From the NCBI RefSeq assembly GCF_018613195.1, contig NZ_JAGGQQ010000008.1:1-64000 (forward strand): a stretch of DNA of 64,000 bases, given 5' to 3'. Within the stretch, counting starts at the first letter, position 1. Each line of letters opens with the position of its first letter. A program made the translations under genes and the position numbers. Positions 7,874 to 53,907 of this stretch are shown piece after piece. Source of the DNA: Bacillus sp. ISL-45 (GTDB lineage Bacteria; Bacillota; Bacilli; Bacillales; Cytobacillaceae). The notes beneath the pieces are model-generated. The model was given only the letters and a program-made list of their open reading frames with translations, was not told the DNA's origin and did no database searches.

Positions 7874-7961
7874 CGCGAATTAATGCTATTATTTTGCGAA
7901 TAAACAACCATTAATGCGAATAAAACAAGATAATTTGCGAATAAATGACGATTTTTGCGAT
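7874..7961. repeat. Periodic spacer array, 20-21 bp units
   Basis: Five units start at 7874, 7895, 7915, 7936 and 7956 with the consensus TGCGAATAAA followed by a variable A/T-rich half. Steps are 21, 20, 21 and 20 bp. The array lies between convergent genes. Confidence 0.8.
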
Positions 7962-8008
7962 GAACAAGATACGATGTGATGTTCGTCATTGAATCACAGA
8001 ATTCCAGT

Positions 8009-8045
8009 CAAAAAATAAAAACTGGGAGGCAAATTTGCCTTCCAG
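8009..8045 (-). terminator. Terminator of the DUF1540 gene
   Basis: A near-perfect palindrome (CTGGGAGGCAAA / TTTGCCTTCCAG) beginning 9 nt after the stop codon, with a T-rich tail on the minus strand at 8009-8020. Confidence 0.85.
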
Positions 8046-8054
8046 CTCTTAAAA

Positions 8055-8207
8055 TTACATCTTTTCAAACGTATCACAGATGGTTTCTTTTTCATTCACT
8101 GCCTGATTGCCTCTTTTGGCTACGACCATGATAGAGTCAGCCACACATTGATCGCCTTCTGCCCAGTATTTACAGTTTTCTACTTCGCATTTTACTTCGA
8201 TTCTCAT
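8055..8207 (-). CDS. DUF1540 domain mini-protein
   Basis: A 50-residue protein read from 8207 down to 8055. It has four conserved cysteines spaced CEVENC, DQC and TIC, and the pattern V-x-C-x-V-x-x-C-x-Y-W typical of DUF1540, a family of small predicted metal-binding proteins frequent in Firmicutes. AGGAGGTG stands 5 nt before the ATG, which makes it a convincing gene despite its size. Function is unknown; zinc binding by the four cysteines is inference. Confidence 0.85.
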   Translation of the reverse strand: MRIEVKCEVENCKYWAEGDQCVADSIMVVAKRGNQAVNEKETICDTFEKM

Positions 8208-8321
8208 GTGAGCACCTCCTTAAAGGTCTTGATAATCAATACCCGATTATGAGGGGGGACAAACCCTATACGTTATTCCCGGACTCCCCCTGGTGATTCA
8301 TATGGCAATTCGATGCGAACC

Positions 8322-8350
8322 TTGCACTTTCAAAGGAGAATATTTATACT
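8322..8350 (+). promoter_or_regulatory. Promoter of ywiB-argS
   Basis: TTGCAC and TATACT with an exact 17-bp spacer, about 90 bp before ywiB. Confidence 0.65.
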
Positions 8351-8439
8351 TATAAAGTTATAATGAAGATAGAAAAGCATCAGCTATTTGATAAGAACCG
8401 AATAAGTGCTGAGCTGGATTAGAAAAGGGCGTGTTAACG

Positions 8440-8883
8440 GTGTCTAGTAAACCCGCTGATCAGATTCCTGTCAAAGTGACGGTAAAAACGGCAATTTACA
8501 GTGGCAAAGAGAAGGAAACTTTTGAATTGACTACTTTTGGCCGATACTATACAAAGGCGAACAGCTCTTACCTCCAATATGATGAAGTGATGGAGGAAGG
8601 AGATGTCCATACGACGGTAAAAATATCAGGAGACGAAGTGCTGATTTTGCGCAGCGGCGCGATCAAGATGAGGCTTCATTTTCTGCTGAATAAAAAAACT
8701 CCGGGTAACTATAAGACTCAATATGGTCTTCTCGGGACCTCGGCGCTCACGAAGCGGCTCGATACTGATTTTAATGAGACAAAGCAGGAGGGCCATGTGG
8801 ACCTGCTTTATGATATGGCCATCCAGGGCGCGAGTGCAGGTACATACCATTTGACGATCAATTATAAGGAGGAAGGCAAATGA
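8440..8883 (+). CDS. ywiB: DUF1934 domain protein, YwiB-like
   Basis: About 147 residues forming a beta-rich calycin-like fold typical of DUF1934. The GTG at 8440 lies 11 nt after AAAAGGG, whereas the GTG at 8431 leaves only 2 nt, so the former is preferred but not certain. The stop codon overlaps the argS start (ATGA), so the genes are translationally coupled, as in B. subtilis. The function of YwiB is unknown. Confidence 0.85.
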
Positions 8884-10550
8884 ATATAGTTGAACAGGTT
8901 CAATTGAAGCTGAAGGAAGAAATCAAGCAGGCAATCATCAAAGCTGGACTAGCCGAGGAAGCCGAAATTCCGGCGGTGATCCTGGAGACGCCCAAGGAAA
9001 AAGCGCACGGGGATTACTCCACGAATATGGCGATGCAGCTTGCTCGTGTGGCGAAAAAGGCGCCAAGGCAGATTGCAGAGCAGCTGATTGAGAACTTTGA
9101 TAAAAGCAAGGCATCCATCGAGAAAATTGAAATCGCCGGACCCGGCTTCATCAACTTTTACATGGATAACAGCTATTTGACGGATTTGATTCCAGCGATC
9201 CTGGAAGCAGGAGACAGCTATGGTGAATCGAAGGTAGGAAATGGACAGAAGATCCAGATCGAGTTCGTTTCTGCCAACCCGACCGGTGACCTTCACCTTG
9301 GCCATGCGCGCGGCGCTGCGGTAGGTGATTCACTGTGCAATGTGCTTGCTAAGGCTGGATACGATGTTTCCCGCGAGTATTATATCAATGATGCGGGCAA
9401 TCAGATCAATAACCTGGCACTGTCTGTTGAGGCACGTTATTTCCAGGCGCTGGGCATGGACAAGCCGATGCCTGAGGATGGCTATCATGGTGCTGATATC
9501 ATCGGGATCGGGCACAAGCTCGCTGAAGAGTTCGGCGATAAGTATGTGAATGTTCCGGACCAGGAGCGCTTCGATGCATTCCGTGAGTACGGTTTGAAAT
9601 ATGAAATGGAAAAGCTGAAGCAGGACCTTGAGAACTTCCGTGTCAGATTCGATGTTTGGTACTCAGAAACTTCTCTATATCAAAATGGTAAAATCGACGT
9701 GGCGCTAGATGCACTGCGTGCGAATGGCCATATCTATGAAGAGGACGGCGCGACATGGTTCCGTTCATCAGAGCTTGGCGATGACAAGGACCGCGTGCTG
9801 ATCAAGCAGGATGGCTCTTATACGTATTTGCTTCCGGACATTGCCTACCATAAGGACAAGCTTGAGCGCGGCTTTGAAAAGCTGATCAACATCTGGGGAG
9901 CGGACCACCACGGTTATATCCCTCGGATGAAGGCAGCGATTGAGGCACTTGGCTATGATCGTGAGGCGCTTGAAGTCGAAATCATCCAGCTCGTCCATCT
10001 GTACAAGAACGGTGAGAAGATGAAGATGAGTAAGCGTACAGGTAAGGCTGTCACAATGCGTGACCTGATTGATGAAGTAGGTTTGGATGCAGTTCGTTAC
10101 TTCTTCGCAATGAGAAGCGCGGACACTCATATGGACTTCGACCTTGACCTGGCCGTATCCCAGTCCAATGAAAACCCAGTTTTCTACGCACAGTATGCAC
10201 ATGCACGTATCAACAGCATTCTGCGTTCTGCTGCAGAACAAGGTTTGATCTTCGACATCGAGGCAGATTTCAGGCATATCCAGTCCGAGAAGGAAATTGA
10301 CCTGCTTAAGAAGCTGGGTGAATTCCCGCTGGCCGTTGCCGAAGCAGCCCAGAAGCGCATGCCGCACCGAATCTCCAACTACATTTTCGAGCTGGCATCC
10401 GTATTCCACAGCTTCTACAACGCTGAGAAAGTATTGGATTTGGAGAATAAAGAAAGAACAGTGGCACGCCTGTCGCTGATCAAGACAGCACAGATCACTT
10501 TAAAGAATGCACTTGAGTTGATTGGGGTTTCGGCTCCAGAGAAGATGTAA
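8880..10550 (+). CDS. argS: Arginine-tRNA ligase
   Basis: A 556-residue class I aminoacyl-tRNA synthetase. The HIGH-type signature appears as HLGHARG in [17 protein letters not shown], and the KMSKR loop as [12 protein letters not shown]. The N-terminal additional domain (about residues 1-100) and the C-terminal DALR anticodon-binding domain with [12 protein letters not shown] are present. AAGGAGG precedes the ATG, which overlaps the ywiB stop. Confidence 0.97.
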
Positions 10551-10558
10551 AAAAACTT

Positions 10559-10600
10559 AGGCATAAGCCCCTTAAACAAGGGGCTATTATGCCTTTTTAT
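10559..10600. terminator. Bidirectional terminator after argS
   Basis: A long stem (AGGCATAAGCCCCTT / AAGGGGCTATTATGCCT, one bulge) with T-rich flank on the plus strand and A-rich flank on the other. It can serve both argS and the convergent small membrane protein gene. Confidence 0.85.
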
Positions 10601-11007
10601 AATAGGATCGTCATAAACCCGGAAAAAGCAAGGAAGAGAAATAAAGTTCCTGGCCCTCCTAGTAAAACGATGATGAGGACAACTTCAACTACCTTGTTAA
10701 GTTTAAAAGCAAAATAACTTCTTCCGGCTTTTCTTTCTTTAAACAGGAACCAAAGTGTTTTTAAGCTCACTATTCCCAGGAATAAATACAGTCCTATTAA
10801 CAAAAAGTCTATTAAAATTTCAAAGCCTGAAATGATAAGTGGATTCCATCCTTTTTTAACAAAAAGTTCTCCACCTCCTCCTTTAAAGCAGCCAATTAAT
10901 AAACCAACAATGGCAATAGGAATAACAAAAGCCAGGTTATATAAAATGTCGCCTATTCTCTCCCGGAATGTACGTGCTGGACCTGGGCCCTTAGCTGTTT
11001 TTGCCAC
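10597..11007 (-). CDS. Small membrane protein, unknown function
   Basis: This 136-residue protein is not recognised. It has three strong hydrophobic stretches (about residues 22-43, 56-85 and 107-136) and a basic N-terminus (MAKTAKGPGPARTFRER). It is convergent with argS and divergent from a membrane-embedded M48 protease, so a link to envelope quality control is possible but only inferred. Confidence 0.6.
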   Translation of the reverse strand: MAKTAKGPGPARTFRERIGDILYNLAFVIPIAIVGLLIGCFKGGGGELFVKKGWNPLIISGFEILIDFLLIGLYLFLGIVSLKTLWFLFKERKAGRSYFAFKLNKVVEVVLIIVLLGGPGTLFLFLAFSGFMTILL

Positions 11008-11197
11008 GCTACAATTCCCCTCCGAAAATCAGGATAACAAACTCATTTTACGATTTTTTTCATTCAGTGCGCGTTCACTCATGTAAAACCCACGAAAATT
11101 CAATTAAGGGAAAAAATACCTGTATATACTCTGGTTTTTTTTATTTTCAATAATCTGTTAATAGCTTACTATATCAATATATTCAACAGATTGGGAG

Positions 11198-12475
11198 TTG
11201 GGGGAAATAAGTATTTTACATAATGAACATGCCTGTCCTGACTGCAGTTCAGCTATTCCTTTCAATAAAGGGTATGTTTCATGGTGCGATTGCGGATATA
11301 ATATGGATCATTCACCATCAGAAAAGACGGACTCAAAATTAAATGCTTTATATGAAAAACTGGGAAGTAAACGTGGTCTAAGAGTTTTTCAAGAACTGGC
11401 TTCCCAACAGGAACTTCGGCAGGGGGTTTCTTTTACAAAAAGCTTAGCTTTCATGGCAGCTACTTTTGTGCACTTAATTAGCATCAGTTTATTTTTACTG
11501 GGCTTATACTTGCTTATTTTCCAAAACGCTAATTTCATGTTCATAGCTGCAGGCTTAATTCTTTTGGGTATAGCCTGGCTGGCCAGGCCAAGAGTGCCGA
11601 AGCTGGACAAAGATGAGCATTTGATTGCCCGTCAGGAATTTCCGTTTTTATTCGAGGCTGTGGACCAGTTAGCTGATGCTATGCAGGTAAAAAGGATTGA
11701 TGGAATCATTATTGATGATGAATTCAATGCGTCAGTGGCGCAAATTGGCTGGAGAAGAAGGAAAATCATTAAGATAGGGTTGCCGTTATTTTCTCTTTTG
11801 GAACCAGAAGAGCAGCTGGCAATCCTCGCGCATGAATTTGGCCATATATCAAATGGCGATTTAACCAGATCATTTTATATTGGAACCGCCTTATATACGC
11901 TGCAGACATGGTATGAGCTTTTAAATCCTGTGCCAATCGATGAATATGACAGCATGGGCTTTTTTGAAATACCTGTATATTATTTTATGGCATTTCTTGC
12001 ATTAATCCCTTACTCAATATTCTTATTACTAGTGCACCTGTTGTTTGACGATTCCCAGAAGGGTGAGTATTTAGCCGATGAAAGGGCTGCAAAGGCAGTA
12101 GGCTATAAACATTTAATCTCATCAATGGAAAAATTCCAATACGCTGATACCTTTTATCTAAAGATAAGGGAGTTAGCGGTGAGGAAAAACACAATTAATT
12201 TATTTAATGCTGTTCATGAACAAATCAAAATAATGCCAGGCCGTGAGAAAGAACGGCTCTCCCGCCTTGCACAACTTGAGACATCTAAACTGGATTCGAC
12301 TCACCCGTCAACAGCCTACCGCATCAAGCTGCTTGAAAACTTGAAAGCTTCTCCTTCTTCTATAGCTGTAGGTAAAGGTACTTTAGCAAAGATGCAGAAG
12401 GAGCTTGAAACGCAGCAAACCAGAATTCAAGAGGAAGTAGTCGAAAATTACCGGTATGTTTTGAATATGTATTAA
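11198..12475 (+). CDS. Zinc-ribbon M48 family membrane metalloprotease
   Basis: A 425-residue protein. The N-terminus has CPDC and CDC cysteine pairs resembling a zinc ribbon (residues about 10-35), followed by two membrane segments near 85-130. The gluzincin motif HEFGH appears in AILAHEFGHISNGD, and GEYLADERAA supplies the third zinc-ligand Glu. Two further membrane segments lie between them (YYFMAFLALIPYSIFLLLV). This is the HtpX/Ste24-like layout, fused to a zinc ribbon. The TTG at 11198 is an uncertain start, with only a weak GGGAG before it. Confidence 0.85.
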   Translation: MGEISILHNEHACPDCSSAIPFNKGYVSWCDCGYNMDHSPSEKTDSKLNALYEKLGSKRGLRVFQELASQQELRQGVSFTKSLAFMAATFVHLISISLFLLGLYLLIFQNANFMFIAAGLILLGIAWLARPRVPKLDKDEHLIARQEFPFLFEAVDQLADAMQVKRIDGIIIDDEFNASVAQIGWRRRKIIKIGLPLFSLLEPEEQLAILAHEFGHISNGDLTRSFYIGTALYTLQTWYELLNPVPIDEYDSMGFFEIPVYYFMAFLALIPYSIFLLLVHLLFDDSQKGEYLADERAAKAVGYKHLISSMEKFQYADTFYLKIRELAVRKNTINLFNAVHEQIKIMPGREKERLSRLAQLETSKLDSTHPSTAYRIKLLENLKASPSSIAVGKGTLAKMQKELETQQTRIQEEVVENYRYVLNMY

Positions 12476-12481
12476 TAAAGG

Positions 12482-12500
12482 CTGCTGGATGGTCCAGCAG
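12482..12500. terminator. Stem-loop between the M48 protease gene and uvsE
   Basis: CTGCTGGA and TCCAGCAG form a perfect 8-bp stem with a 3-nt loop between convergent genes. The U-run is weak in both directions. Confidence 0.5.
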
Positions 12501-12508
12501 TCTTCAGC

Positions 12509-13465
12509 TTATTTCCATTCCAATACAGCGCCGCCAATCCGTTTCACTCCGCGGATTTTGGCCAAATCCTCGACCAGTTTTAAAGCTGCTTTGTCCTTCT
12601 CCTTCGCTTCAATCATGAAATCGACATCCCGGCCGATGCCACGGAGAATATCGATCAATGGCAGGATGAATTCAGGGTCAACGTAATCCGCGTGCGATCG
12701 ATACGCTTTTTCTGTTTTAGGGGAAGAAATATGGATCTTAGGCTTCAAGCCAGTCCGTTCCCAGGTAGCGAAGCCATCCGGAAGCAGTTTTTCCAAAGAC
12801 TCTTCACAACGATTTGCCATGTGGTGGTGATAATCGAACATGAAGGGGACGTCTTCCTTCAAACAGGCAGTGAGTGTTTCTTCTGCATTGTACGTTTTAT
12901 CATCATTCTCAAGCGTGGTGATTTTTTTGATATGCTCTGGCAGTTTGGCGAAGTTTTCATGGAAGCGCAAGATCGTTTCTTCTTTGTTACCGTATGCCCC
13001 GCCAATATGGATGTTGATTAGCGCTTCATTTTCCAGTCCCATCGCTTCGAGCATGCCATAATGGTATTCCATATCGATGATTGCATTAGCCGTCACTTCC
13101 TCCCTCGGAGAAGTGAACAGCGTGTATTGATTTGGATGGAAACTTGTCCGGATTCCATGCTTCTTCACCAATGCACCGATTTCGAGCCATTTGTCGCGGA
13201 ACGGCGTGACATAGTCCCATTTTACCTCCGGGTGGGTGGCGAGCGGCGCAATCGAGCTTGAGAACCGATACAAAGGTATATCGTGGGCGATATTGTAATG
13301 AATCATTCTTTTTGTGTTCACAAGGTTCTGGCAGGTTACGGAATGCAGCTTTTCACGCCGTTCGTCTTCAGGCAGCTGTCCATAACGGGCGAATGTAAGT
13401 GCCTTGGATGGAGATGCATCCCACAGGCTGATGGCGGTGGATACATAGCCCAACCGAATAATCAT
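12509..13465 (-). CDS. uvsE: UV DNA damage endonuclease
   Basis: A 318-residue TIM-barrel endonuclease that nicks DNA 5' of UV photoproducts as an alternative start of excision repair. The start [37 protein letters not shown] and FDYHHHMAN segments carry the His/Glu/Asp metal ligands of the UVDE family. In B. subtilis the orthologue (ywjD) also neighbours ywjE and ywjF. Spores of related species rely on several UV-repair routes. Full length, no damage seen. Confidence 0.93.
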
Positions 13466-13508
13466 AGAGACACTCCTTTATTGTCGAGCAGTCCGGTTCA
13501 TTATAAAA

Positions 13509-13694
13509 GGCTGTTTTCGTAAAGATTATTGTTAAAATCCTAAAGCCGATTTTAACGTGACAGTAAGCCATTTTGTAGGTCGGTATTAAGTTTTCAAGCT
13601 CTTTTCTCATAAAATGCTTTAATTTTGTGAAGAAACATAGGCCATTCAATCCTATTTTGTAGCCAATAGCAACAAAGTTTGAGAAAAGAGCCTT
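13509..13694 (+). repeat. Dispersed repeat family B, copy 1
   Basis: About 185 bp that match the reverse complement of 46721-46903 over nearly the whole length. Highly conserved stretches are CGTAAAGATT, GTTAAAATCCTAAAGCC, GATTTTAACGT, GGTCGGTATTAAG and CAATCCTATTTTG. The right part is bounded by a 12-bp inverted repeat, GCTCTTTTCTCA (13598-13609) and TGAGAAAAGAGC (13680-13691). It abuts the clsB stop codon. It contains an accidental open frame but no credible gene. Confidence 0.88.
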
Positions 13695-14880
13695 ATAAAA
13701 AATAGGAAATGGTACTCGCGGCTTTTTCCTTCAGCAGGGCACGGTTGAAGTCATCCAAAGCAGCCTTCCTTGAGTTCAGAATATCTTCCGTAAGGATCCG
13801 CTTCACTTTTTTGATAAAATCGCCATCATAAATCAGGCAGTTCAATTCATAATTTAAAAACATGCTTCTTTTATCAAAATTAGCGGTGCCAATGTCACAA
13901 ACCGTATCATCCACGAGCAGGGCCTTTGAATGATAAAAGCCATTTAAGAACTGATAGACTTCGGCGCCATCCCTGATCAGAGTCCTCAGATAAGGATAGG
14001 AAGCTTCTTTAACAAGAGCATGGTCGGAAACGAGCGGGACTAGAACCGTTACTGAAACACCTCTTTCGATCGCATCCCGCAATAAGTTGAATACCCTTTT
14101 GCTCGGGATGAAGTACGGTGTCCCAATAAAAATAGAAGTCATTGCATTGCTGATCAGGTCAGACATCATTTCCTCCAGCAGAATGCCTTCAGTGGGAACA
14201 AGCTGCTGACGGATCGTGCCTTTTTCGAGGGCAGGGAAATAGGCTTTATTTTGCAGCAAGTTGACTTTTGCAGCTGCATGCCAATCCTCAAGGAACTCCG
14301 ATTGCAGATCGGCAACGCCTTCCCCGGTCATTTTTAAGTGATAATCGCGCCATGGCGACAGCTTTGAATCCTGATTGTTATATTCCTTACCAATATTGAA
14401 GCCGCCGAGATAACCGATCTTTCCGTCAATGACGGTGATTTTCCTGTGGTTCCGCACCTGGGACGAGTAAAATAAGAACGGCAATTTAGGCATTTGGGAA
14501 TAAGCGAATTCCACGCCGGCAGCCTTCAGCGATTTAATCGTCTTGCGCTTCAGTCCGCTGCCCACCCAATCGACCAAAAGGCGCACCTCGACCCCAGCCT
14601 TCACCCGTTCTTTTAATATAGAGAGAAATTCCTGGCTGATTTTATCATCCTGGACGATATAAAATAAAATATGAATGTGCTGCTTTGCGTTTTTTAATTC
14701 GGAAAAAAGGTCGTCGAACAATTTAGGGCCTTCGGCAAAAATGGCAAGGTTACTCTCCCGGACAGGCAGCATATTCGTTTTGGCACTTGCCAGATGCTTT
14801 TTCCTGCCAAGCATGAAGTCAGCATAGACCCATAGGAACAGCCCCGCTATTATCGCAATTAAAATCCATCCAAAATCCAT
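13693..14880 (-). CDS. clsB: Cardiolipin synthase-type phospholipase D family protein
   Basis: A 395-residue membrane-anchored enzyme with one N-terminal membrane segment (residues 2-24). Two PLD catalytic motifs are present: HRKITVIDGKIGYLGG and HSKALLVDD, each HxK-x4-D. Cardiolipin synthases join two phosphatidylglycerols. Position between uvsE and ywjF corresponds to B. subtilis ywjE (clsB), and the single N-terminal membrane helix fits that class better than the two-helix ClsA. The exact symbol rests on synteny. Confidence 0.9.
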   Translation of the reverse strand: MDFGWILIAIIAGLFLWVYADFMLGRKKHLASAKTNMLPVRESNLAIFAEGPKLFDDLFSELKNAKQHIHILFYIVQDDKISQEFLSILKERVKAGVEVRLLVDWVGSGLKRKTIKSLKAAGVEFAYSQMPKLPFLFYSSQVRNHRKITVIDGKIGYLGGFNIGKEYNNQDSKLSPWRDYHLKMTGEGVADLQSEFLEDWHAAAKVNLLQNKAYFPALEKGTIRQQLVPTEGILLEEMMSDLISNAMTSIFIGTPYFIPSKRVFNLLRDAIERGVSVTVLVPLVSDHALVKEASYPYLRTLIRDGAEVYQFLNGFYHSKALLVDDTVCDIGTANFDKRSMFLNYELNCLIYDGDFIKKVKRILTEDILNSRKAALDDFNRALLKEKAASTISYFL

Positions 14881-14936
14881 AGCAATTCGGCTCCCTTAAA
14901 AGTAAATTATCAAAGTATGCCCTGGCTCACCTCGAT

Positions 14937-14960
14937 CAGTGTCCAGCTGCAGCGCTTCCG
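14937..14960 (+). repeat. Fragment of dispersed repeat family A
   Basis: GTGTCCAGCTGCAGCGC resembles the left terminus of family A, especially copy 1. It is a probable decayed remnant in the clsB-ywjF intergenic region. Confidence 0.4.
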
Positions 14961-20880: not shown

Positions 20881-21088
20881 TGACAGGTTTGACCGTGAAA
20901 GCCGAAAAGCTGTCAAGAAAAGCCCGGAATCGTGACAGGTTTGGCAGTGGAAGCCGAAAAGCTGTCAAGAAAAACCCATAATCGTGACAGGTGTGACCGT
21001 GAAAGCCGAAAAGCTGTCAAGAAAACCCCGTAATCGTGACAGGTTTGACCGTGGAAGCATCAAAGTAGTCAAGAAAATCCGGGAATCA
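20881..21088. repeat. 52-bp tandem repeat, four units
   Basis: Units begin at 20881, 20933, 20985 and 21037 with an exact 52-bp step; the last one is diverged at its end. Each carries the arm TGACAG followed about 24 bp later by CTGTCA, giving a conserved hairpin-capable dyad in every unit. The array fills the gap between two paralogous acyl-CoA dehydrogenase genes in the same operon and would be transcribed. Confidence 0.9.
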
Positions 21089-27152: not shown

Positions 27153-27269
27153 AACTGGCATAAAGGTTTAGAATTTGTTTATAATGTAGAATATGCATTC
27201 TGGGATATTTTCCTTGTTTTCGGACGCAGGGCCGGGTAAGGCCTGGAATAGAGAAAGGAAGTGCGGAGA

Positions 27270-27836
27270 TTGAGTTTAAGTCAATACTCAAAAGAAGAGC
27301 TTCAAGAAATGTCATTGATTGAAGTTGCCTTCGAAATTTTAAAAGAAAAGAAGCAAGCGATCACGTTCCAAGAGCTGATGACTGAAATCAAGAGCATTCT
27401 TAAGTTGGACGAGGCCGATATTAACGAAAAAATGGTTCAGTTCTATACAGATATAAACATAGATGGACGTTTCATGTCCCAGGGGGAAGGCCGCTGGGGA
27501 CTTCGCGTCTGGTATCCTGTTGACCAAATCGAAGAAGACAATGTCACGACAGTCAAGCCTAAGAAAAAGAAATCGAAGAAGGCTGTTGATGAGGATGACC
27601 TCGATCTTGACGAATTCGATGAGATTGATGAGGAAGATCTTGATTTCGATGACATCGACGAATTTGATGAAGATGATGACGATGATGCCCTGGACGAAGA
27701 TGATGATGAAGAAGAATTCGATGAGGACCTTGAAGACACTGACGACTTTGAAGACGATGACGAGTTGTTAAAAGACGAAGAGGAAGACGAAGAGCTGGCA
27801 CTGGAAGATGAAGAGGACGAGGACGAAGAACTGTAA
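27270..27836 (+). CDS. rpoE: RNA polymerase delta subunit
   Basis: 188 residues from the TTG at 27270, 9 nt after AAGGAA; the in-frame GTG at 27261 touches that site. Residues 1-90 form the folded HARE-HTH domain (FQELMTEIKSIL, then QFYTDINIDGRF and WGLRVWYPVDQ). The rest after a KPKKKKSKK basic patch is an Asp/Glu-rich disordered tail. Delta raises RNA polymerase recycling and promoter selectivity in Firmicutes. In B. subtilis rpoE likewise stands before pyrG. Confidence 0.95.
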   Translation: MSLSQYSKEELQEMSLIEVAFEILKEKKQAITFQELMTEIKSILKLDEADINEKMVQFYTDINIDGRFMSQGEGRWGLRVWYPVDQIEEDNVTTVKPKKKKSKKAVDEDDLDLDEFDEIDEEDLDFDDIDEFDEDDDDDALDEDDDEEEFDEDLEDTDDFEDDDELLKDEEEDEELALEDEEDEDEEL

Positions 27837-37254: not shown

Positions 37255-37341
37255 GAGGTCAGTGTGTTTTTCCAATAACGGTATAACCGTTGATTATAAC
37301 TCTGTTTCGGATATGATTCAGGGCGGAAGGAGATGAAAAGA

Positions 37342-38716: not shown

Positions 38717-38845
38717 TCCTATATTTGGATGACGGCACGATTATCCGTCTTTTTTGGGCAATTATTGCTGAACATGGAAAGATTATTGGCCAACTTCGGG
38801 AAAATATCACTTATCTTCGGGCAATTATCCAACTTGAGTAAGAGA
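38717..38845. repeat. Periodic spacer array, 21-bp units
   Basis: Units begin at 38741, 38762, 38783, 38804 and 38825: exact 21-bp steps with the pattern TTATCnnnCTTCGGGCAA. The 5' flank is TCCTATATTTGGA (38717-38729), overlapping the 19-mer GGATGACGGCACGATTATC (38727-38745), which is found as its exact reverse complement at 53732-53750. The same unit recurs there inverted. Confidence 0.82.
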
Positions 38846-43611: not shown

Positions 43612-44013
43612 ATGGCTAAAAATAATCGAAACAATAATAATGAAGATAAGATGTCTCGAGAAGAAAGAGGTCGCATGGGTGGCGAAGCAACAGCTGAGAA
43701 CCATGGCAGCGAATTCTACCAGGAAATAGGCAGAAAAGGCGGCGAGGCGACAGCTGAAAGTCACGATAAAGAATTCTACCAAGAAATCGGTAAAAAGGGT
43801 GGAGAAGCTACTGCTGAAAGTCATGATAGCGACTTCTACCAGGAAATCGGTAAAAAAGGTGGCGAAGCAACATCCGAAAGCCACGATAAGGAATTCTATC
43901 AGGAGATCGGCCGCAAAGGCGGAGAAACGACTTCTGAAAACCACGACCGAAGCTTCTATGAAGAAATCGGCGAAAAAGGCGGCAATGCCCGCAATAACAA
44001 CAACAATAACTAA
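43612..44013 (+). CDS. KGG-repeat general stress protein (GsiB-like)
   Basis: 133 highly hydrophilic residues with five to six copies of an approximately 20-residue repeat built on FYQEIGKKGGEAT and E-S/N-H-D. The KGG motif is typical of desiccation- or stress-associated proteins such as B. subtilis GsiB. It is predicted to be disordered and Asn-rich at both ends. No sigma-B promoter (GTTTAA / GGGWAW) could be read upstream. A strong AAGGAGG site is present. Confidence 0.85.
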   Translation: MAKNNRNNNNEDKMSREERGRMGGEATAENHGSEFYQEIGRKGGEATAESHDKEFYQEIGKKGGEATAESHDSDFYQEIGKKGGEATSESHDKEFYQEIGRKGGETTSENHDRSFYEEIGEKGGNARNNNNNN

Positions 44014-45905: not shown

Positions 45906-45997
45906 ACCAGTTGGTGAAAATATATTACCAGTTGAGAGCATTTTAATAACAGTTGAAAACGATATAATACCAGTTGAAAATAATATATTACCAGTTG
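45906..45997. repeat. Periodic spacer array, exact 21-bp units
   Basis: The motif ACCAGTTG (one copy AACAGTTG) recurs at 45906, 45927, 45948, 45969 and 45990, an exact 21-bp step. The rest of the unit is A/T-rich and variable. It lies between ywlC and mntP. Confidence 0.88.
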
Positions 45998-46126
45998 AAG
46001 CGAATTCCCCTCCTTGGAAACATTCCTTTGAACAAGACTCTTGATCAATTCAAACTGGAAAAATCCTGCTTCTAAATCCTATTGGACGTGCATATGCTGA
46101 ATTAGCAAGTCCGAGGGGGCGAAGAC

Positions 46127-46720: not shown

Positions 46721-46903
46721 AAGCTCTTTTCTCAAACTTTATTGCTTTTGACTGCAAAATAGGATTGATATCCTATTTTTCTTTGCAAAGTTGACACTAT
46801 TGTGAGAAAAGAGCATGCAAACTTAATACCGACCTGCAAAATGGCCTTCTATTACGTTAAAATCGGCTTTAGGATTTTAACAACAATCTTTACGAAAACA
46901 GCA
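46721..46903 (-). repeat. Dispersed repeat family B, copy 2
   Basis: This is the reverse complement of the copy at 13509-13694, about 85% identical by eye. The inverted repeat is GCTCTTTTCTCA (46723-46734) and TGAGAAAAGAGC (46802-46813). Its interior makes an open frame fused in phase to ywlE, which would give a false long N-terminus. Confidence 0.9.
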
Positions 46904-46972
46904 TTTTTCGAAAATGAAATTGCTGAACGATTATCATATAATGAAGAAAAGTCATTCACAGGAGGGACAAGC

Positions 46973-47410
46973 ATGGCGCGCATTTTATTTGTCTGTACCG
47001 GAAACACATGCCGCAGCCCAATGGCGGAAGCGATTTTAAAAAGCAAACAGCTCCCTGGAGTAGAGGTGAAATCGGCAGGAGTATATGCCCCGAATGGAGC
47101 TGAAGCTTCTGCGAACGCGAAGACCGTTCTCGAGGAAAACGATATCAGCCATGATCATCGTTCCTCGATGTTAACAAGGGATGAAATCGACTGGGCAACC
47201 CTGGTTCTGACGATGACACAAAGCCATAAAGGGCTGGTCATGAACCAATATCCATTCGCTGCGGATAAAATTTTTACCTTAAAAGAATTTGCTGAGGAAA
47301 CGGGAAACCTGGATGTAGCAGATCCGTTTGGCGGAAATGAACAAATTTATCGTGAAGCTTTTAAAGAAATTCAAAAAAGTATCGAAAGAATCCTCGATAA
47401 AATCCGATAA
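46973..47410 (+). CDS. ywlE: Low-molecular-weight protein phosphatase (arginine/tyrosine; YwlE-type)
   Basis: 145 residues. The P-loop C-x5-R-S appears as CTGNTCRS (Cys8, Arg14, Ser15), and the general acid is Asp in VADPFGG. Thr12 after the Asn fits the arginine-phosphatase subtype seen in B. subtilis YwlE, which reverses McsB protein-arginine phosphorylation. ATG 46973 sits behind AGGAGGG. The longer open frame starting at 46802 derives from a repeat element and has no ribosome site. Confidence 0.93.
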   Translation: MARILFVCTGNTCRSPMAEAILKSKQLPGVEVKSAGVYAPNGAEASANAKTVLEENDISHDHRSSMLTRDEIDWATLVLTMTQSHKGLVMNQYPFAADKIFTLKEFAEETGNLDVADPFGGNEQIYREAFKEIQKSIERILDKIR

Positions 47411-47452
47411 AACCCTTGAGGAGTTTTTATTATTTTTTCAGGGGGATTATCA

Positions 47453-48748
47453 GTGGGGTCTAAACGCAGCTACAAAATGGGGTTAAGAAAGAAAATGGTC
47501 ATGCTGACGACTGTGTTGGCGATCATCACTTATTCAACGAGCGCATTTTTTATTTATTTCCTGCAGCCTTATGTCCAGAGTTTAATCGAAGTAAATTCGG
47601 TCGTTTATAACGTAGCGGTTCTTGGAATGGGGATTTTCTGGTCAGGCCTGCTAGCGTATATGGCTGCCGGATTGATCATCAAGCCATTGCAAAAGCTGGA
47701 GCAATCTGCATTAAAAGCAGCACAGGGTGAAATTGGCGAGGATGCGGAAGTCTCGAAATCGGATGATGAAATCCGCTCTTTGGGAATGGCCTTCAACAAT
47801 ATGCTCGCAAACCTGCGTGAAATGGTCAGTCAGATTGATAGTAACTTCAAGGAAACAAATGAAAAAGTCATCCAGATATCCGGACAATCTGCGGCAGCAT
47901 CTGAGCAGGCGTCGATTATCTCGACAACGATCAAGGAAATTGCCGCGGGAGCTGATTCTTCGGCATTGTCAACACAGACAACTGCTGAGTCTGTGGATGA
48001 AGTCATCCGGATCGCCGAGGATGTCCAGGAAAAAGCGCGGACATCTGAATCAATTTCCGTGGAAATGGTCAAAGACCTGCAGGAATCGAAGAATGCGATT
48101 CACTCGCTGATTTCCGGCATCGAGACACTGGCAAATGATAACCGTGAATCACTGGGCACGGTAAAACGATTGGAAGAGAACGCGACGAAAGTAGAGCAAA
48201 TCATCCAGCTTGTTGGCGATATTGCGGCTCAAACAAACTTGCTTGCCTTGAACGCATCGATTGAGGCAGCTCGTGCTGGCGAGCATGGGAAAGGATTTGC
48301 TGTGGTTGCCGAAGAAGTCAGGAAGCTGGCAGACCAGAGTGCGGGCGCTGTCCAGGGAATATCCGAACTGATCCAGAACATCCAGTCTGAAGTCCAGAAC
48401 GTTGTCGGACAGATCGGCAGACAGGTCGAAACCGCGAACAGAGAAGCGAAAAAAGGCGAGAGAACGAACCAGGTGATCGACGCAATGACATCCACGATTC
48501 ATGAGATGGCTGACGTCATCCACGCAATCGCCGCGCTGGTCGAGACCCAAATGGAAACCATCCAGCATACATCCACCCAATCGCAGGAAATGGCGGCAAT
48601 CGCAGAAGAAACCTCAGCCGGAGCACTCAGCGTAGCATCAGCAGCAGAGCAGCAGGCAGAAGTCATCTCCAATGTCGAAGACCTCGCCGTTGAACTGAAG
48701 AATCAGGCGGAAAAACTAAAAGGCACGATTACGAAGTTTTCGTTATAA
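47453..48748 (+). CDS. Methyl-accepting chemotaxis protein lacking a large extracellular sensor
   Basis: 431 residues from GTG 47453, 6 nt behind AGGGGGA. Two membrane segments (about 15-37 and 46-70) are separated by only about 10 residues, so no extracellular sensing domain is possible. HAMP-like residues 70-125 follow, and then the signalling coiled coil with the conserved hairpin tip [32 protein letters not shown]. It probably senses membrane state or acts with a partner. The gene is an insertion between ywlE and rpiB relative to B. subtilis. Confidence 0.9.
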
Positions 48749-48755
48749 TTTCTGG

Positions 48756-48784
48756 ACCACAGCTGCGTGCTGTGGTTTTTGTTT
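48756..48784 (+). terminator. Terminator of the chemoreceptor gene
   Basis: ACCACAGC / GCTGTGGT perfect stem, 5-nt loop, T-run. Confidence 0.9.
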
Positions 48785-48820
48785 TAATTCACTGGAAAAA
48801 ATGAAGCGGAATTTCCAATT

Positions 48821-48940
48821 CGCTATAAAAATGAAAAAGTCGCTATAAAAAATAGAAACTCGCTATAAAAATGAAAAAGTCGCTATAAAAATGAAAAAGT
48901 CGCTATAAAAGATAAAAACTCGCTATAAAATTTTTCTTGA
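48821..48940. repeat. Periodic spacer array, exact 20-bp units
   Basis: Six units of CGCTATAAAAATGAAAAAGT begin at 48821, 48841, 48861, 48881, 48901 and 48921. The first ten bases are invariant; the rest is nearly so except in the last unit. It lies between the chemoreceptor gene and rpiB. Confidence 0.93.
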
Positions 48941-49072
48941 TCCGATTTGTGTATGAACAGCTAAAATATCGACGCAAACCAACTCGTTTTCTTTATAAAT
49001 CGAAGCGATTATGAGAAAATAACGATAGATTTGATCGCCCCGCAAGCCGGGAATACATAGGAGGATTTTACA

Positions 49073-49513
49073 ATGAAAGTTGCTATTGCTTCAGACCATG
49101 GCGGAGTGAATATCCGCGAAGAAATTAAGAATTTGATGGACGAAATGAATATCCAGTATGAAGATTTCGGCTGCGAATGCGGTACATCTGTTGACTATCC
49201 AGACTATGCGCTTCCGGTTGCCGAGAAAGTGGCGAACGGTGAGTTTGACAAAGGGATCCTGATTTGCGGAACAGGAATCGGCATGAGCATTGCCGCAAAC
49301 AAGGTAAAAGGAATCCGCTGCGCGCTCGTGCATGACGTATTCAGCGCAAAAGCGACACGCCAGCATAATGACAGCAATGTCCTGGCGATGGGCGAACGTG
49401 TAATTGGACCAGGACTGGCGCGTGAAATCGCAGCCGTATGGCTTTCAGAAGAATACGAAGGCGGCCGCCACGAAAACCGAGTCGGTAAAATTAAGGAGTA
49501 TGAAAATAAATAA
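49073..49513 (+). CDS. rpiB: Ribose-5-phosphate isomerase B
   Basis: 146 residues of the RpiB/LacAB family. The N-terminal MKVAIASDHGGVNIREEI and active-site ILICGTGIGMSIAANK with its cysteine are standard, and NDSNVLAMGERV completes the site. It interconverts ribose-5-P and ribulose-5-P. B. subtilis orthologue ywlF. AGGAGG is upstream. Confidence 0.95.
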   Translation: MKVAIASDHGGVNIREEIKNLMDEMNIQYEDFGCECGTSVDYPDYALPVAEKVANGEFDKGILICGTGIGMSIAANKVKGIRCALVHDVFSAKATRQHNDSNVLAMGERVIGPGLAREIAAVWLSEEYEGGRHENRVGKIKEYENK

Positions 49514-49552
49514 CTTCCAGCCTATTTGCAAGGAATATCAAATACCAATGTA

Positions 49553-50134
49553 ATGGAGGCGTTACAACTGGCTATCGAACAATGGAAAGCAGAATTGAAC
49601 TCCATCCTTACTGAATTTAATGAACAGGTGCAGCTGAAAAAAGGCCAGGTGCTGGTCGTCGGCTGCAGCACGAGTGAAATCATCGGCAAGCGGATCGGCA
49701 CAGCCGGTACGGATGAGGTGGCGGAAATGGTCTTCAGCCAGCTCCGCGAACTCCAGAAGAAAACGGGCGTCCAGCTGGCATTCCAGTGCTGCGAGCATTT
49801 GAACCGGGCGATTGTCGTCGAGAGGGAAACAGCACACCAGAAGCAGCTGGAAGAAGTGACGGTCATTCCAGTCAGGACCGCGGGCGGCGCAATGGCAGCT
49901 TACGCCTATCAAAACCTCGGAGATGCAGTGGTCGTCGAGTTCATCAAGGCTGACGCCGGCATCGATATCGGCGATACGCTGATTGGCATGCAAATGAAGC
50001 ATGTCGCTGTGCCAGTAAGAGTGAAGCAAAAAAGCATCGGTCATGCTCATGTTACCCTGGCGAAGACGAGACCGAAGCTGATCGGCGGCACCCGTGCGGT
50101 TTACGAACAAACAAAAGAAAACGAGTCTTGCTGA
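49553..50134 (+). CDS. ywlG: TIGR01440/UPF0340 family protein YwlG
   Basis: About 190 residues. The conserved core is [33 protein letters not shown] and [15 protein letters not shown], matching YwlG. The start is unclear: ATG 49553 lacks a ribosome site, while CTG at 49568 is 8 nt after GGAGG and a TTG lies at 49526. A paired cysteine (QCCEH) and the acidic loop suggest a small-molecule site, but function is unknown. It neighbours glyA as in B. subtilis. Confidence 0.88.
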
Positions 50135-50281
50135 CAGGGGAAAGGCAATGGAGGAAAACACAGGCCTGATAATCAGTTTTCCTTTTACCTTCTTCCTTTC
50201 CTTTCATTATAATATCGGCTAAAATAAGAATGAATTTTCTAATAACGGAACCACGCAATACATATAAGAGGGGGAACTTAA

Positions 50282-51523
50282 GTGAAGCACTTGTCACAGC
50301 AGGACAGCCAGCTATATGCTGCAATGCAGGATGAATTGAAGCGTCAGCGCACGAAAATCGAATTGATAGCATCAGAGAACTTTGTCAGCGAAGCCGTAAT
50401 GGAGGCACAGGGGTCTGTACTTACAAATAAGTACGCAGAAGGCTATCCGGGCCGCCGCTATTATGGCGGGTGTGAATATGTCGATGTTGCCGAAAACATC
50501 GCCCGCGACCGCGCGAAGGAAATTTTCGGCGCCGAGCATGTCAATGTCCAGCCGCACTCAGGCGCGCAGGCCAATATGGCCGTTTACTTCACGATTCTTG
50601 AGCATGGAGACACTGTGCTTGGGATGAATCTTTCACACGGCGGACATTTGACGCACGGAAGCCCGGTAAACTTCAGCGGCGTTCAGTATAATTTCGTTGA
50701 GTATGGTGTTGATGAAGATACTCATATGATCAACTATGATGTCGTTCTTGAAAAAGCTCGCGAGCATAAGCCGAAGCTGATTGTTGCCGGTGCGAGTGCT
50801 TACCCGAGAGCGATCGACTTCAAGCGATTCCGTGAAATCGCCGATGAAGTGGGCGCATACCTGATGGTCGATATGGCGCATATCGCTGGACTGGTCGCAG
50901 CAGGCCTGCATCAGAATCCGGTGCCGTATGCTGACTTTGTTACAACGACTACTCATAAAACTCTTCGCGGCCCGCGCGGCGGAATGATCCTCTGCAAAGA
51001 AGAATTCGCGAAGAAAATTGATAAGTCCATCTTCCCTGGCATCCAGGGCGGCCCGCTGATGCACGTCATCGCTGCTAAAGCAGTTGCATTCGGTGAAGCG
51101 CTCCAGGATTCTTTTAAAGAATACGCACAGAATATCATTTCCAATGCGAACCGCCTTGCAGAAGGCTTGAAGAAGGAAGGCATCGACCTTGTATCGGCCG
51201 GTACAGACAACCATTTGCTATTGGTTGACCTGCGTTCACTTGGCCTGACTGGGAAAGTAGCGGAAAAGGTTCTTGATGATATCGGCATAACCGTCAATAA
51301 AAACACGATTCCATTCGATCCAGAAAGCCCATTTGTAACAAGCGGAATCCGCATCGGTACAGCCGCCGTCACAAGCCGCGGCTTCGGACATGCAGAAATG
51401 GACGAAATCGCATCACTCATCGCCTTCACATTGAAAAATCACGAAGACGAAGCGAAGCTGGAAGAAGCGAAGAATCGCGTCGAAGATCTAACTAGCAAGT
51501 TCGAACTATATCCAGAGAGATAA
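50282..51523 (+). CDS. glyA: Serine hydroxymethyltransferase
   Basis: 413 residues, GTG start behind GAGGGGG. A PLP enzyme that converts serine and THF into glycine and methylene-THF. The Schiff-base Lys is in [14 protein letters not shown], and [25 protein letters not shown] and [12 protein letters not shown] are conserved. It is the main supply of one-carbon units. No purine-type riboswitch is seen in the short leader. Confidence 0.97.
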
Positions 51524-51534
51524 GTTTTCACCCG

Positions 51535-51565
51535 GCGGTCCTCCATGAATGAGGGCCGCTTTTTC
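51535..51565 (+). terminator. Terminator of glyA
   Basis: GCGGTCCTC / GAGGGCCGC with one G-T pair, 7-nt loop, five T. Confidence 0.88.
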
Positions 51566-51591
51566 AGGGGAAAATCATTAGGCTGTAGCGG

Positions 51592-51620
51592 TTGCTTGTC
51601 CAGAGGTTTTTCTGTAAAAT
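51592..51620 (+). promoter_or_regulatory. Promoter of upp
   Basis: TTGCTT, exact 17-bp spacer, TAAAAT. Confidence 0.65.
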
Positions 51621-51701
51621 TAGACGAAGTGTGATTCAACAAATCTTACATATAACATACAGGTGTTCACTACTCACTTACCTTTAAAAGGAGCGATACA
51701 C

Positions 51702-52331
51702 ATGGCAAAAGTATACGTATTTGACCATCCATTGATCCAGCATAAACTTACTTATATCCGCGAAAAAAGCACAGGCACGAAGGAATTTCGCGAGCTTGTA
51801 GATGAAGTAGCAACGCTGATGGCGTTCGAAATCACGCGTGACATGCCGCTTGAGGAAATTGAAATTGAAACACCGGTCGAAAAGACAAAATCGAAGGTAT
51901 TATCAGGCAAGAAGCTTGGGATTATCCCGATCCTTCGCGCAGGCATCGGAATGGTTGACGGCATCCTGAAATTGATCCCGGCAGCGAAGGTAGGACATAT
52001 CGGACTTTACCGCGATCCGGAAACATTGATGCCGGTTGAATACTATGTAAAACTTCCAAGTGACGTGGAGGAGCGCGATTTTATCGTCGTCGATCCAATG
52101 CTTGCGACAGGTGGATCTGCCGTCGAAGCAATCAACTCTCTTAAAAAGCGAGGCGCGAAGCATATCAAATTCATGTGTTTGATTGCGGCTCCAGAAGGGG
52201 TAGAAACGGTAAAAGAAGCGCACCCTGATGTTGACATTTACATCGCTGCCCTCGATGAAAAGCTGAATGACCACGGATACATCGTACCTGGACTAGGAGA
52301 CGCAGGAGACCGTTTATTCGGGACAAAATAA
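51702..52331 (+). CDS. upp: Uracil phosphoribosyltransferase
   Basis: 209 residues, identical in length to B. subtilis Upp. It makes UMP from uracil and PRPP. The PRPP motif is [14 protein letters not shown] and the uracil site is near the C-terminal [15 protein letters not shown] 51702 follows AAAGGAG. The downstream mnaA starts 13 nt after the stop. Confidence 0.97.
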
Positions 52332-52343
52332 GGAGTGTTTGAA

Positions 52344-53486
52344 TTGAACAAGCCAATTAAAGTAATGACAATTTTTGGGACACGCCCGGAAGCAATTAAA
52401 ATGGCTCCGCTTGTCCTCGAATTACAGAAACACCCTGAACACTTTGAATCAATCGTAACGGTAACCGCCCAGCACCGCCAAATGCTGGACCAGGTACTGA
52501 ACATTTTCAATATCACGCCAGACCACGACCTCAACATCATGAAGGATCGCCAAACTTTGATTGATGTAACGACTAGAGGTTTGGAAGGCCTGGATAAAGT
52601 AATGAAGGAAGTCAAGCCGGACATCGTGCTTGTCCATGGAGATACGACAACGACATTTGTGGCCAGTCTTGCGGCGTATTATAACCAGATTGTTGTCGGC
52701 CATGTCGAGGCAGGCTTGAGGACTTGGAATAAGTATTCTCCATTCCCTGAGGAAATGAACCGCCAGCTGACAGGAGTCATGGCCGATCTTCATTTCGCGC
52801 CGACTTCCAAATCAGCGGCTAATTTGCTGCAGGAAAACAAATCTGAAGAGAATATCTTCGTAACTGGCAACACGGCCATCGATGCACTGACGACGACAGT
52901 AAAAGAAACCTACCAGCATGAAGTTCTCGATAAGCTAGGCAATGACCGCTTGATCCTGATGACGGCACACCGACGCGAAAACCTTGGTGAGCCAATGCGC
53001 AATATGTTCCGCGCCATCAAGCGTATTGTCGATGAGCAGCGTGATGTACAAGTTGTTTATCCTGTTCACTTGAATCCTGTGGTTCGTGAACTAGCAGACG
53101 AGGTGCTGGGCAATGACCCGCGCATCCATTTGATCGAGCCTCTCGACGTCATTGATTTCCATAACTTCGCTTCACGCGCGCATCTCATCCTGACTGATTC
53201 AGGCGGCGTGCAGGAAGAAGCACCGTCACTAGGCGTGCCTGTACTCGTTCTTCGCGACACAACAGAGCGTCCGGAAGGCATCGAGGCAGGAACATTGAAG
53301 CTCGCTGGAAACGAAGAGCAGCCAATTTACCAAATGGCAACAGAACTGCTGACTGACCAGCAAGCATATGAAAAAATGGCCAAAGCCTCAAATCCATACG
53401 GAGATGGCCGCGCATCAGAACGTATTTGCGAAGCGATTCGATACTACTTCAAGCGCACCGAAAATCGTCCTGAACAATATAAATAA
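52344..53486 (+). CDS. mnaA: UDP-N-acetylglucosamine 2-epimerase (non-hydrolysing)
   Basis: 380 residues from the TTG at 52344, 8 nt behind AAGGAG. It interconverts UDP-GlcNAc and UDP-ManNAc for teichoic acid linkage units. Motifs MTIFGTRPEAIKMAPL, VHGDTTTTF, HVEAGLRT, TAHRRENLGEP and LTDSGGVQEEAPSLG are intact. It sits between upp and the atp region, and is likely co-transcribed with upp. Confidence 0.96.
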   Translation: MNKPIKVMTIFGTRPEAIKMAPLVLELQKHPEHFESIVTVTAQHRQMLDQVLNIFNITPDHDLNIMKDRQTLIDVTTRGLEGLDKVMKEVKPDIVLVHGDTTTTFVASLAAYYNQIVVGHVEAGLRTWNKYSPFPEEMNRQLTGVMADLHFAPTSKSAANLLQENKSEENIFVTGNTAIDALTTTVKETYQHEVLDKLGNDRLILMTAHRRENLGEPMRNMFRAIKRIVDEQRDVQVVYPVHLNPVVRELADEVLGNDPRIHLIEPLDVIDFHNFASRAHLILTDSGGVQEEAPSLGVPVLVLRDTTERPEGIEAGTLKLAGNEEQPIYQMATELLTDQQAYEKMAKASNPYGDGRASERICEAIRYYFKRTENRPEQYK

Positions 53487-53495
53487 GAACCTTTT

Positions 53496-53532
53496 AAACA
53501 CCTCTTTTTTCAAAAAAAGGGGTGTTTTCTTT
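53496..53532 (+). terminator. Terminator of mnaA
   Basis: AAACACCTCTTTTTT / AAAAAAAGGGGTGTTT, 15-bp stem, then TTCTTTTT. Confidence 0.92.
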
Positions 53533-53647
53533 TTGGTGAAGGGTTGGCATGGGGAAGTAACAGGTGAAAACAGCTGTAAATTACCCCAAAACACTGCTTG
53601 AAAAGGCCTAAACGCGTGCTGGAAAAAATTTTAAATCCCTTCCACGA

Positions 53648-53760
53648 GATAATTCCCCGAAACTCACCGATATTCTCCTGATTAAACACAATAATCTCCC
53701 GAAAAACCAGATTAATTGCCCGAAACTCGGTGATAATCGTGCCGTCATCCTATATTTGGA
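53648..53760. repeat. Periodic spacer array, 21-bp units (inverted kin of the tdk array)
   Basis: The CCGA end of the unit GATAATTnCCCGA ends at 53660, 53681, 53702 and 53723, exact 21-bp steps, with a fifth diverged unit up to 53745. Its reverse complement TTCGGGCAATTAATC is the unit of the array at 38741. It ends in GATAATCGTGCCGTCATCC (53732-53750) and TCCTATATTTGGA (53748-53760). Confidence 0.82.
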
Positions 53761-53799
53761 AAAAAGTCACCCGAAACTGAAAACATTTATATTCATTAA

Positions 53800-53907
53800 T
53801 TGCAGGAAACCCAATAGTAATTGCACCCTCAACTCAAATACTTGCACCAAAACCCTCTATAATTGCACCAACATTAGTGGTAATTGCGCGTTCACCCTAT
53901 TTTTGGA
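53800..53907. repeat. Periodic spacer array, exact 21-bp units
   Basis: TTGCA or TTGCG recurs at 53800, 53821, 53842, 53863 and 53884, an exact 21-bp step, in the context TAATTGCACC. It closes with CCCTATTTTTGGA (53895-53907), 11 of 13 bases the same as the flank of the previous array. It lies in the leader of the S8 protease gene. Confidence 0.85.

What the first reader, a model, noticed from the sequence alone, without database searches (positions are those of the whole stretch)
7874..53907. Locus-specific spacer arrays whose periods are whole helical turns (20, 21, 52 bp)
At least eight intergenic arrays were read by eye: 1-208 (52 bp x4), 7874-7961 (20-21 bp x5), 20881-21088 (52 bp x4), 38741-38845 (21 bp x5), 45906-45997 (21 bp x5), 48821-48940 (20 bp x6), 53648-53745 (21 bp x5) and 53800-53890 (21 bp x5). 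Unit sequences differ from locus to locus, yet the step length is almost invariant. 20-21 and 52 bp are close to two and five turns of B-DNA, so equivalent bases face the same side of the helix. None is a multiple of three throughout, so they are not coding, and they do not split into repeat plus spacer as CRISPR does. All lie 3' of genes. This suggests a shared generating or selecting mechanism that sees DNA periodicity rather than sequence, for example a phased nucleoid-protein or transcript-end platform.
Basis: partly seen in the sequence, partly recalled or inferred. Interest (0 to 1): 0.85.

Follow-up and report, generated by a model that had tools for sequence, protein, structure and literature searches.

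The report
Fixed-length satellite DNA between bacterial genes
This Mesobacillus-type bacterium carries many short repeat arrays between its genes whose repeat length is fixed (about 20 or about 52 letters) while the letters change; this kind of satellite was already described, but here the 52-letter ones are also found to point the way the chromosome is copied, which gives a first handle on what they might do.

Summary
All eight arrays are real. In 708 kb of this Mesobacillus-type genome 54 of 453 intergenic segments carry a significant period, against 2 of 453 shuffled; 47 of the 54 have periods 20-22, 40-41 or 51-53. The class is published: Subirana & Messeguer describe constant-length (20-21, 52 nt), variable-sequence repeats, including B. 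selenatarsenatis of this genus, and mention two helical turns and nucleoid proteins (PMC8161180). The arrays are not locus-specific, not confined to 3' ends, and not 'any whole turn' (none of 54 at 30-32 or 61-64).

Added here, not found in the parts I read: (1) 52-bp units carry inverted half-site pairs (z 11.9 own, 15.3 published consensuses). (2) TCGC-core arrays carry a 25-bp palindromic cap: 9 of 11 such palindromes sit on an array. (3) One locus can hold different families in different species. (4) 52-bp arrays are polarised by replication: GACAG family 62 of 63 arrays in four genomes; in one genome 37 of 39 52-bp arrays are purine-rich on the leading strand, control 154 of 239. 20-bp arrays are not (40 of 56, as genes). 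This favours a DNA-level, replication-linked role over RNA; no protein was identified.

The parts
1..208 (+). 52-bp array, 4 units, TAATGTGCGGATAA..TTATCGTNACATAA half-sites; starts at the contig end
7847..7871 (+). degenerate palindromic cap (CTGGAAA..TTTCAAG) before the 20-21-bp array
   Evidence: read from sequence by eye
7874..7978 (+). 20-21-bp (41-bp) direct array, core GCGAATAAA
20881..21088 (+). 52-bp array, 4 units, GACAG..CTGTC inverted half-sites; purine-rich on the inferred leading strand
38741..38845 (+). 21-bp array, degenerate core TTCGGGCAATTA; five relatives carry GTGCAATTA at the same place
45906..45999 (-). 21-bp array, core TAATACCAGTTGAA (reverse strand CAACTGGTATTA)
48793..48817 (+). 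25-bp palindromic cap TGGAAA-N13-TTTCCA
48820..48939 (+). 20-bp array, 6 copies of core TCGCTATAAAA
53648..53745 (-). 21-bp array, core TAATTGCCCGAAA (reverse-strand form of the 38741 core)
53795..53899 (-). 21-bp array, core TAATTGCACC

Best explanation
The arrays belong to the published class of constant-length bacterial tandem repeats and most likely act as DNA, not RNA. Two kinds are present. The 20-21-bp kind is a row of short direct cores (for example TCGCTATAAAA) every two helical turns, in the TCGC subfamilies usually capped by a 25-bp palindrome; most likely a DNA-binding protein assembles along one face of the helix. The 52-bp kind is a row of inverted half-site pairs with a 52-bp ruler and a purine-rich side that faces the leading strand; most likely it is built or read in a direction-dependent way by something that travels with or after the replication fork. 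Shown: fixed rulers, inverted pairs, cap, family exchange at a fixed locus, replication polarity. Inferred: the existence and identity of the protein(s), and any benefit to the cell.
For: Periods 20-22, 40-41 or 51-53 in 47 of 54 arrays; only 2 of 453 shuffled segments passed the threshold. In nine arrays of lag 20, read at fixed 20-bp steps, the 12 core columns have a majority share of 0.911, the 8 spacer columns 0.696. Inverted half-sites against mononucleotide shuffles: 14 own families, summed stem 105 vs 66.3 (sd 3.2); 27 published consensuses, 176 vs 110.2 (sd 4.3); singly 11 of 25 arrays at p<0.05. In the 18 arrays of stem 6 or more and 3 or more units, arm columns are 94.3% and other columns 89.6% identical to the array consensus. 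Cap: 9 of 11 perfect TGGAAA..TTTCCA palindromes in 708 kb sit on a core array, all nine 25 bp long, the other two 20 and 21. Polarity: GACAG family 62 of 63 arrays, the exception at 0.489 of the way round, beside the assumed terminus, vs TCGCTATAAA arrays 40 of 56; G008 37 of 39 52-bp arrays purine-rich on the leading strand, 154 of 239 array-free segments (p 9e-6). With both neighbours head-on 7 of 7, control 17 of 29.
Against: No binding protein was identified or sought. Half-sites differ widely between families, which one sequence-specific protein would not tolerate. Arm spacing within the 52-bp unit varies, unlike an ordinary dimer site. In G000 the purine polarity (20 of 25) is not significantly above the array-free share measured in G008 (p 0.07), with exceptions at C1:80507, 221771, 243852 and C12:40202, 222559. 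The head-on evidence is small (7 of 7 vs 17 of 29). 20-bp arrays show no polarity beyond that of genes, so one explanation may not cover both kinds. Presence at a locus is labile (beside pirin: own genome only of 19; chrA 3': 2 of 8), which argues against a strong local function. 14 of 25 arrays do not reach p<0.05 singly for the inverted pair.
Confidence: 0.48

Rival explanations
1. Neutral or selfish satellites. Hairpin-forming units expand by slippage or template switching, preferentially on the exposed lagging-strand template; the 52-bp length and the orientation reflect what the replication machinery copies or tolerates, with no benefit to the cell.
For: Polarity with replication. ssDNA of 8 of 10 52-bp arrays folded better than shuffles on at least one strand (e.g. 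z -3.4, -4.3, -4.0, -7.2), and the purine-rich strand was the more stable in 8, tied in 1, less stable in 1. Copy number and presence/absence vary fast; a 42-bp duplication is visible in the 21-bp array of L022 (by eye).
Against: Slippage alone does not fix the length at 52 and 20-21 or keep cores while spacers drift. Two of the ten arrays (17048, 222559) did not fold better than shuffles on either strand. Within arrays GT and AC mismatches in arms are similar (17 vs 22) and compensated pairs rare (9, against 49 other mismatches).
Confidence: 0.29
2. Spread by a single-strand-dependent mobile machinery (HUH/Y1-type, as recalled for REP elements), which would explain orientation with the fork and replacement of one family by another at a locus.
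For: Dispersed families at many loci; orientation with replication; family replacement at cydB 3' (11 GACATTTC-type, 2 ACCCTTAT-type, 4 none of 17 loci).
Against: Families are many and unrelated; no transposase was looked for; no common boundary was seen by eye in the few loci printed.
Confidence: 0.1
3. Transcribed repeats acting as small RNAs, sponges or 3'-end hairpins (suggested in PMC8161180 and PMC8625621).
For: Published RNA-seq reads over 52-nt repeats in B. coagulans (passages); inverted arms could fold; moderate excess of 52-bp arrays in convergent regions of G008.
Against: No wobble or compensation signal; several arrays lie beyond a terminator-like hairpin (by eye); core orientation of 20-bp arrays between co-directional genes is mixed (10 with, 7 against by eye; two arrays without a clear core left out); 7 of 7 52-bp arrays between head-on genes still face the leading strand.
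Confidence: 0.08

Closest known systems
Constant-length variable-sequence tandem repeats of Bacillus (Subirana & Messeguer, PMC8161180)
   Same: Periods 20-21 (40-41) and 51-53, many families per genome, non-coding, species-specific, short conserved signals; B. selenatarsenatis (30 of 20-21 nt and 49 of 51-53 nt among 82) is of this genus; two-turn and nucleoid-protein ideas stated.
   Different: The paper notes only that short signals 'and their reverse' are often in the same repeat. Term searches of its main text found leading, orientation, polarity, replichore 0 times and leader, hairpin, palindrom 0 times; family exchange between species at one orthologous locus was not in the parts I read (1-3 of 5 and the table section).
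Eukaryotic satellite DNA
   Same: Length kept while sequence turns over; array-wide homogenisation (recalled).
   Different: Short intergenic arrays dispersed over a bacterial chromosome.
REP/BIME elements
   Same: Intergenic, inverted arms, clustered (recalled).
   Different: Many unrelated families with a 52-bp ruler; no single consensus.
Strand-biased architecture signals (AIMS; KOPS/SRS recalled)
   Same: Orientation tied to replichore (recalled; for AIMS only the start of an abstract was seen).
   Different: 52-bp arrays rather than single 8-mers; enrichment towards the terminus not tested.
CRISPR arrays
   Same: Core plus spacer look in the 20-bp arrays.
   Different: Core about 11-12 bp, spacer about 8-9 bp, dozens of loci.

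Membership tests
Constant-length tandem repeats (Subirana & Messeguer) | Repeat length 20-21 or 51-53 nt predominates | tested here: met
   47 of 54 arrays at 20-22, 40-41 or 51-53
Constant-length tandem repeats (Subirana & Messeguer) | Several sequence families of the same length in one genome | tested here: met
   14 families of 52-bp units among 25 arrays, grouped by eye
Constant-length tandem repeats (Subirana & Messeguer) | Non-coding | tested here: met
   52 and 20 are not multiples of three; the array search itself was restricted to segments outside ORFs, so it is no independent test
Constant-length tandem repeats (Subirana & Messeguer) | Taxon-restricted sequence | tested here: met
   20881 array matched in 17 of 21 genomes of the genus (own included), 0 of 40 of other genera
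Constant-length tandem repeats (Subirana & Messeguer) | Short conserved signals in repeats | tested here: met
   core columns 0.911 vs spacer 0.696; GACA+TGTC in 10 of 38 families
CRISPR | Near-identical repeats of over 20 bp with unique spacers of similar length (recalled) | tested here: not met
   core about 11-12 bp in a 20-bp step; cas genes not searched
REP/BIME | One conserved palindromic consensus (recalled) | tested here: not met
   arms differ between families
REP/BIME | Associated RAYT transposase (recalled) | not tested
   no search made
AIMS/KOPS-like signals | Orientation biased by replichore | tested here: met
   62 of 63 GACAG arrays
AIMS/KOPS-like signals | Density rises towards the terminus (recalled) | not tested
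   positions are but were not analysed for density
Phased protein-binding arrays | A protein that binds them | not testable with these tools
   needs pull-down or ChIP

The most novel reading that the evidence does not exclude
The 52-bp satellites are a replication-oriented chromosome element: a 52-bp (about five-turn) ruler with inverted half-sites and a purine-rich leading-strand face, made or read by a machine coupled to the replication fork or to directional chromosome segregation, whose half-site specificity is re-set from lineage to lineage.
Probability: 0.35. Interest if true: 0.85.

Novelty: new member of a known kind. Interest (0 to 1): 0.6.

Why it matters
PMC8161180 states that these repeats have no obvious function. 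Replication polarity, a widespread inverted-pair plan and family exchange at a fixed locus narrow it towards DNA-level, fork- or segregation-linked processes, and give simple tests (invert an array; shift a unit by half a turn).

Tried and rejected
RNA-hairpin reading: arms conserved, but little compensation and no GT/AC asymmetry (18 of 25 arrays usable). 3'-end platform: no general 3' restriction, but a moderate convergent excess in G008. 'Any whole turn': none of 54 arrays at 30-32 or 61-64. Coding arrays (60-bp repeat in ORF 43612-44013, acidic repeats within ORF 27261-27836) set aside. Rfam at gathering threshold finds only an L31 leader at 37300-37332. (arrays at orthologous loci) was wrong because minus-strand loci were not reoriented; redone. 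In one search the clustering lumps families and orients some wrongly, because inverted arms make orientation ambiguous; composition and the polar word GACAGGTT (19 of 19 arrays agree) were used instead. One search used a wrong gap range and says nothing. One search's per-column table was core-selected, so its invariant columns are by construction; one search replaces it. One search counted each palindrome on both strands (22 sites); one search counts 11. The 1-208 family has 9 places in four genomes; from the listed positions 7 agree with their replichore and the 2 others lie at about 0.48 and 0.50 of the way round (reckoned by hand); in the own genome its C12 match is on the strand opposite to the C27 and C1 ones, so it is not strictly polarised. 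The polarity count left out G019 for GACAG (listing cut after five places, all +); G008 (GACAG) and G015 (TCGC) listings were cut; lengths of G016, G018 and G019 were rounded. The terminus was taken as the point opposite dnaA, about 2.25 Mb in G008; leading strand in G000 was inferred from GC skew and gene direction. Gene contexts rest on ORF-based calls. G007 gave no usable lag statistic (threshold spoilt). Paper searches returned nothing; 30 and 34 led to the Subirana papers; others listed no paper on polarity of such repeats. PMC8161180: parts 1-3 of 5, the figure/table section and two term searches; PMC8625621 and PMC6749651: passages only; the J Bacteriol 2020 paper is not held, nothing of it was seen, and it may contain some of what I call added here.
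Full report
Observation. All eight arrays exist where stated and beat 500 Markov shuffles each (p 0.002-0.006). I read stretches totalling 708 kb of the same genome (window, contig C1, C12:1-320000). Of 453 intergenic segments 54 carry a significant best lag, against 2 of 453 shuffled; lags 20-22: 14, 40-41: 8, 51-53: 25, others 7 (14, 18, 19, 34, 34, 57, 112). In another genome of the genus, G008 (40 stretches of 20 kb), 67 arrays passed, 55 of them at 20-21, 40-43 or 52-53. In 19 short stretches from other genera 6 of 157 segments passed (2 of 157 shuffled), one of them at 21. The 20881 array matches 17 of 21 genomes of the genus (own included) and 0 of 40 others; two genomes without such a match still show 52-bp arrays in 80-kb samples (G002 one, G014 three).

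Prior art. Subirana and Messeguer (PMC8161180) describe this class in Bacillus: 781 repeats of 20-21 nt and 1886 of 51-53 nt among 4029, many families, with B. selenatarsenatis (of this genus) having 30 and 49 of 82. They remark on two helical turns, nucleoid proteins and small RNAs. The finding itself is therefore known.

Anatomy of the 20-bp kind. Direct cores (TCGCTATAAAA, TCGCCAATAAAA, GGTCGATA, AACCGTTAATAAA, TTCGGGCAATTA, GGTGCAATTA, CAACTGGTATTA, GCGAATAAA) at 20-21-bp steps with drifting spacers. In nine lag-20 arrays read at fixed steps the 12 core columns have a majority share of 0.911, the 8 spacer columns 0.696. Of 14 TCGC arrays with three or more cores, 10 carry a TGG..TTCC-type palindrome before the first core by pattern. 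Of 11 perfect TGGAAA..TTTCCA palindromes in 708 kb, 9 sit on a core array, all 25 bp long; the other two are 20 and 21 bp.

Anatomy of the 52-bp kind. Units contain an inverted pair of half-sites. With one array per family (one of the 14 rests on a single unit), the summed stem score is 105 against 66.3 (sd 3.2) in mononucleotide shuffles; 27 published consensuses give 176 against 110.2 (sd 4.3). Singly, 11 of 25 arrays reach p<0.05 and 14 do not. GACA together with TGTC anywhere in the unit is the most over-represented word pair: 10 of 38 families against 0.63 expected (6 of 24 published; 4 of 14 own, where the shuffle maximum also reached 4 and CCGA scores higher); ATGA (9 vs 1.33) and AAGG (6 vs 0.55) follow. 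Arm spacing varies while the period stays 52. In 18 usable arrays arms are better conserved than the rest (94.3 vs 89.6%), with no wobble asymmetry (GT 17, AC 22) and little compensation (9, against 49 other mismatches).

Evolution. At orthologous places the period stays and the letters change: downstream of tdk the core is GGGCAATTA here and GTGCAATTA in five relatives; before rpiB it is TCGCTATAAAA in the window and five relatives, GGTCGATAAA in L018, and L023 shows no such array (by eye). Downstream of cydB 13 of 17 loci carry a 52/53-bp array, 11 of one family and 2 (L127, L130) of another; 4 carry none (18 of 21 genomes had a match, one split and not used). Beside pirin only this genome of 19 loci has its array, two others having a different 52-bp array some 800-900 bp upstream; downstream of chrA 2 of 8.

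Replication polarity. The polar word pair GACAGGTTTG..GAAAAGCTGTC lies on the strand expected from the replichore in 62 of 63 arrays of four genomes (G018 18/18, G016 18/18, G015 10/10, G008 16/17 with a cut listing; ori from dnaA); the one exception sits at 0.489 of the way round, beside the assumed terminus (p 3e-6 against the 78% of genes). The 20-bp TCGCTATAAA arrays agree in 40 of 56, no more than genes do (genes co-directional 465 of 596 in G008). In G008 37 of 39 52-bp arrays are purine-rich on the leading strand (23 of 25 and 14 of 14 on the two replichores; mean 0.624), against 154 of 239 array-free intergenic segments (mean 0.517, sd 0.043); 19 of the 39 carry the GACAGGTT word at least twice, and 18 of the other 20 are purine-rich too; 20-bp arrays 10 of 16. 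In G000 it is 20 of 25 (p 0.07 against 154/239) and 16 of 23. Where both neighbours run against replication 7 of 7 52-bp arrays still face the leading strand (purine 0.58-0.73), against 17 of 29 array-free head-on segments (means 0.505 and 0.511): small numbers, but they argue that neighbours' transcription does not set the orientation.

Mechanism and limits. I favour DNA docking or maintenance elements with two rulers; the 52-bp kind is made or read directionally with the fork. A hairpin-driven, orientation-dependent neutral satellite is the main rival and fits much of the ssDNA folding. No protein was identified. Polarity was tested in one genus only, and whether it is already reported elsewhere could not be checked beyond the searches.

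Noticed in passing
G000 contig ends C27:1, C24:10, C1:51, C2:3: Several contigs of the assembly begin in or next to 52-bp arrays, so array number and length in draft genomes may be underestimated.
   Followed up: no
43612-44013: ORF with a 60-bp x5 coding repeat (GGEATAES..KGG); resembles the 60-nt general stress protein repeat family named in PMC8161180.
   Followed up: no
L023, intergenic tdk-lipoprotein gene: A more distant relative shows about 11-bp steps of a GATTTCNG core at the place where others have 21-bp arrays (by eye).
   Followed up: no
C1:173244-173358 (L043): An intergenic array with a 34-bp period, one of the few that fit neither ruler.
   Followed up: no
37300-37332: L31-Firmicutes ribosomal leader (RF03156).
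   Followed up: no
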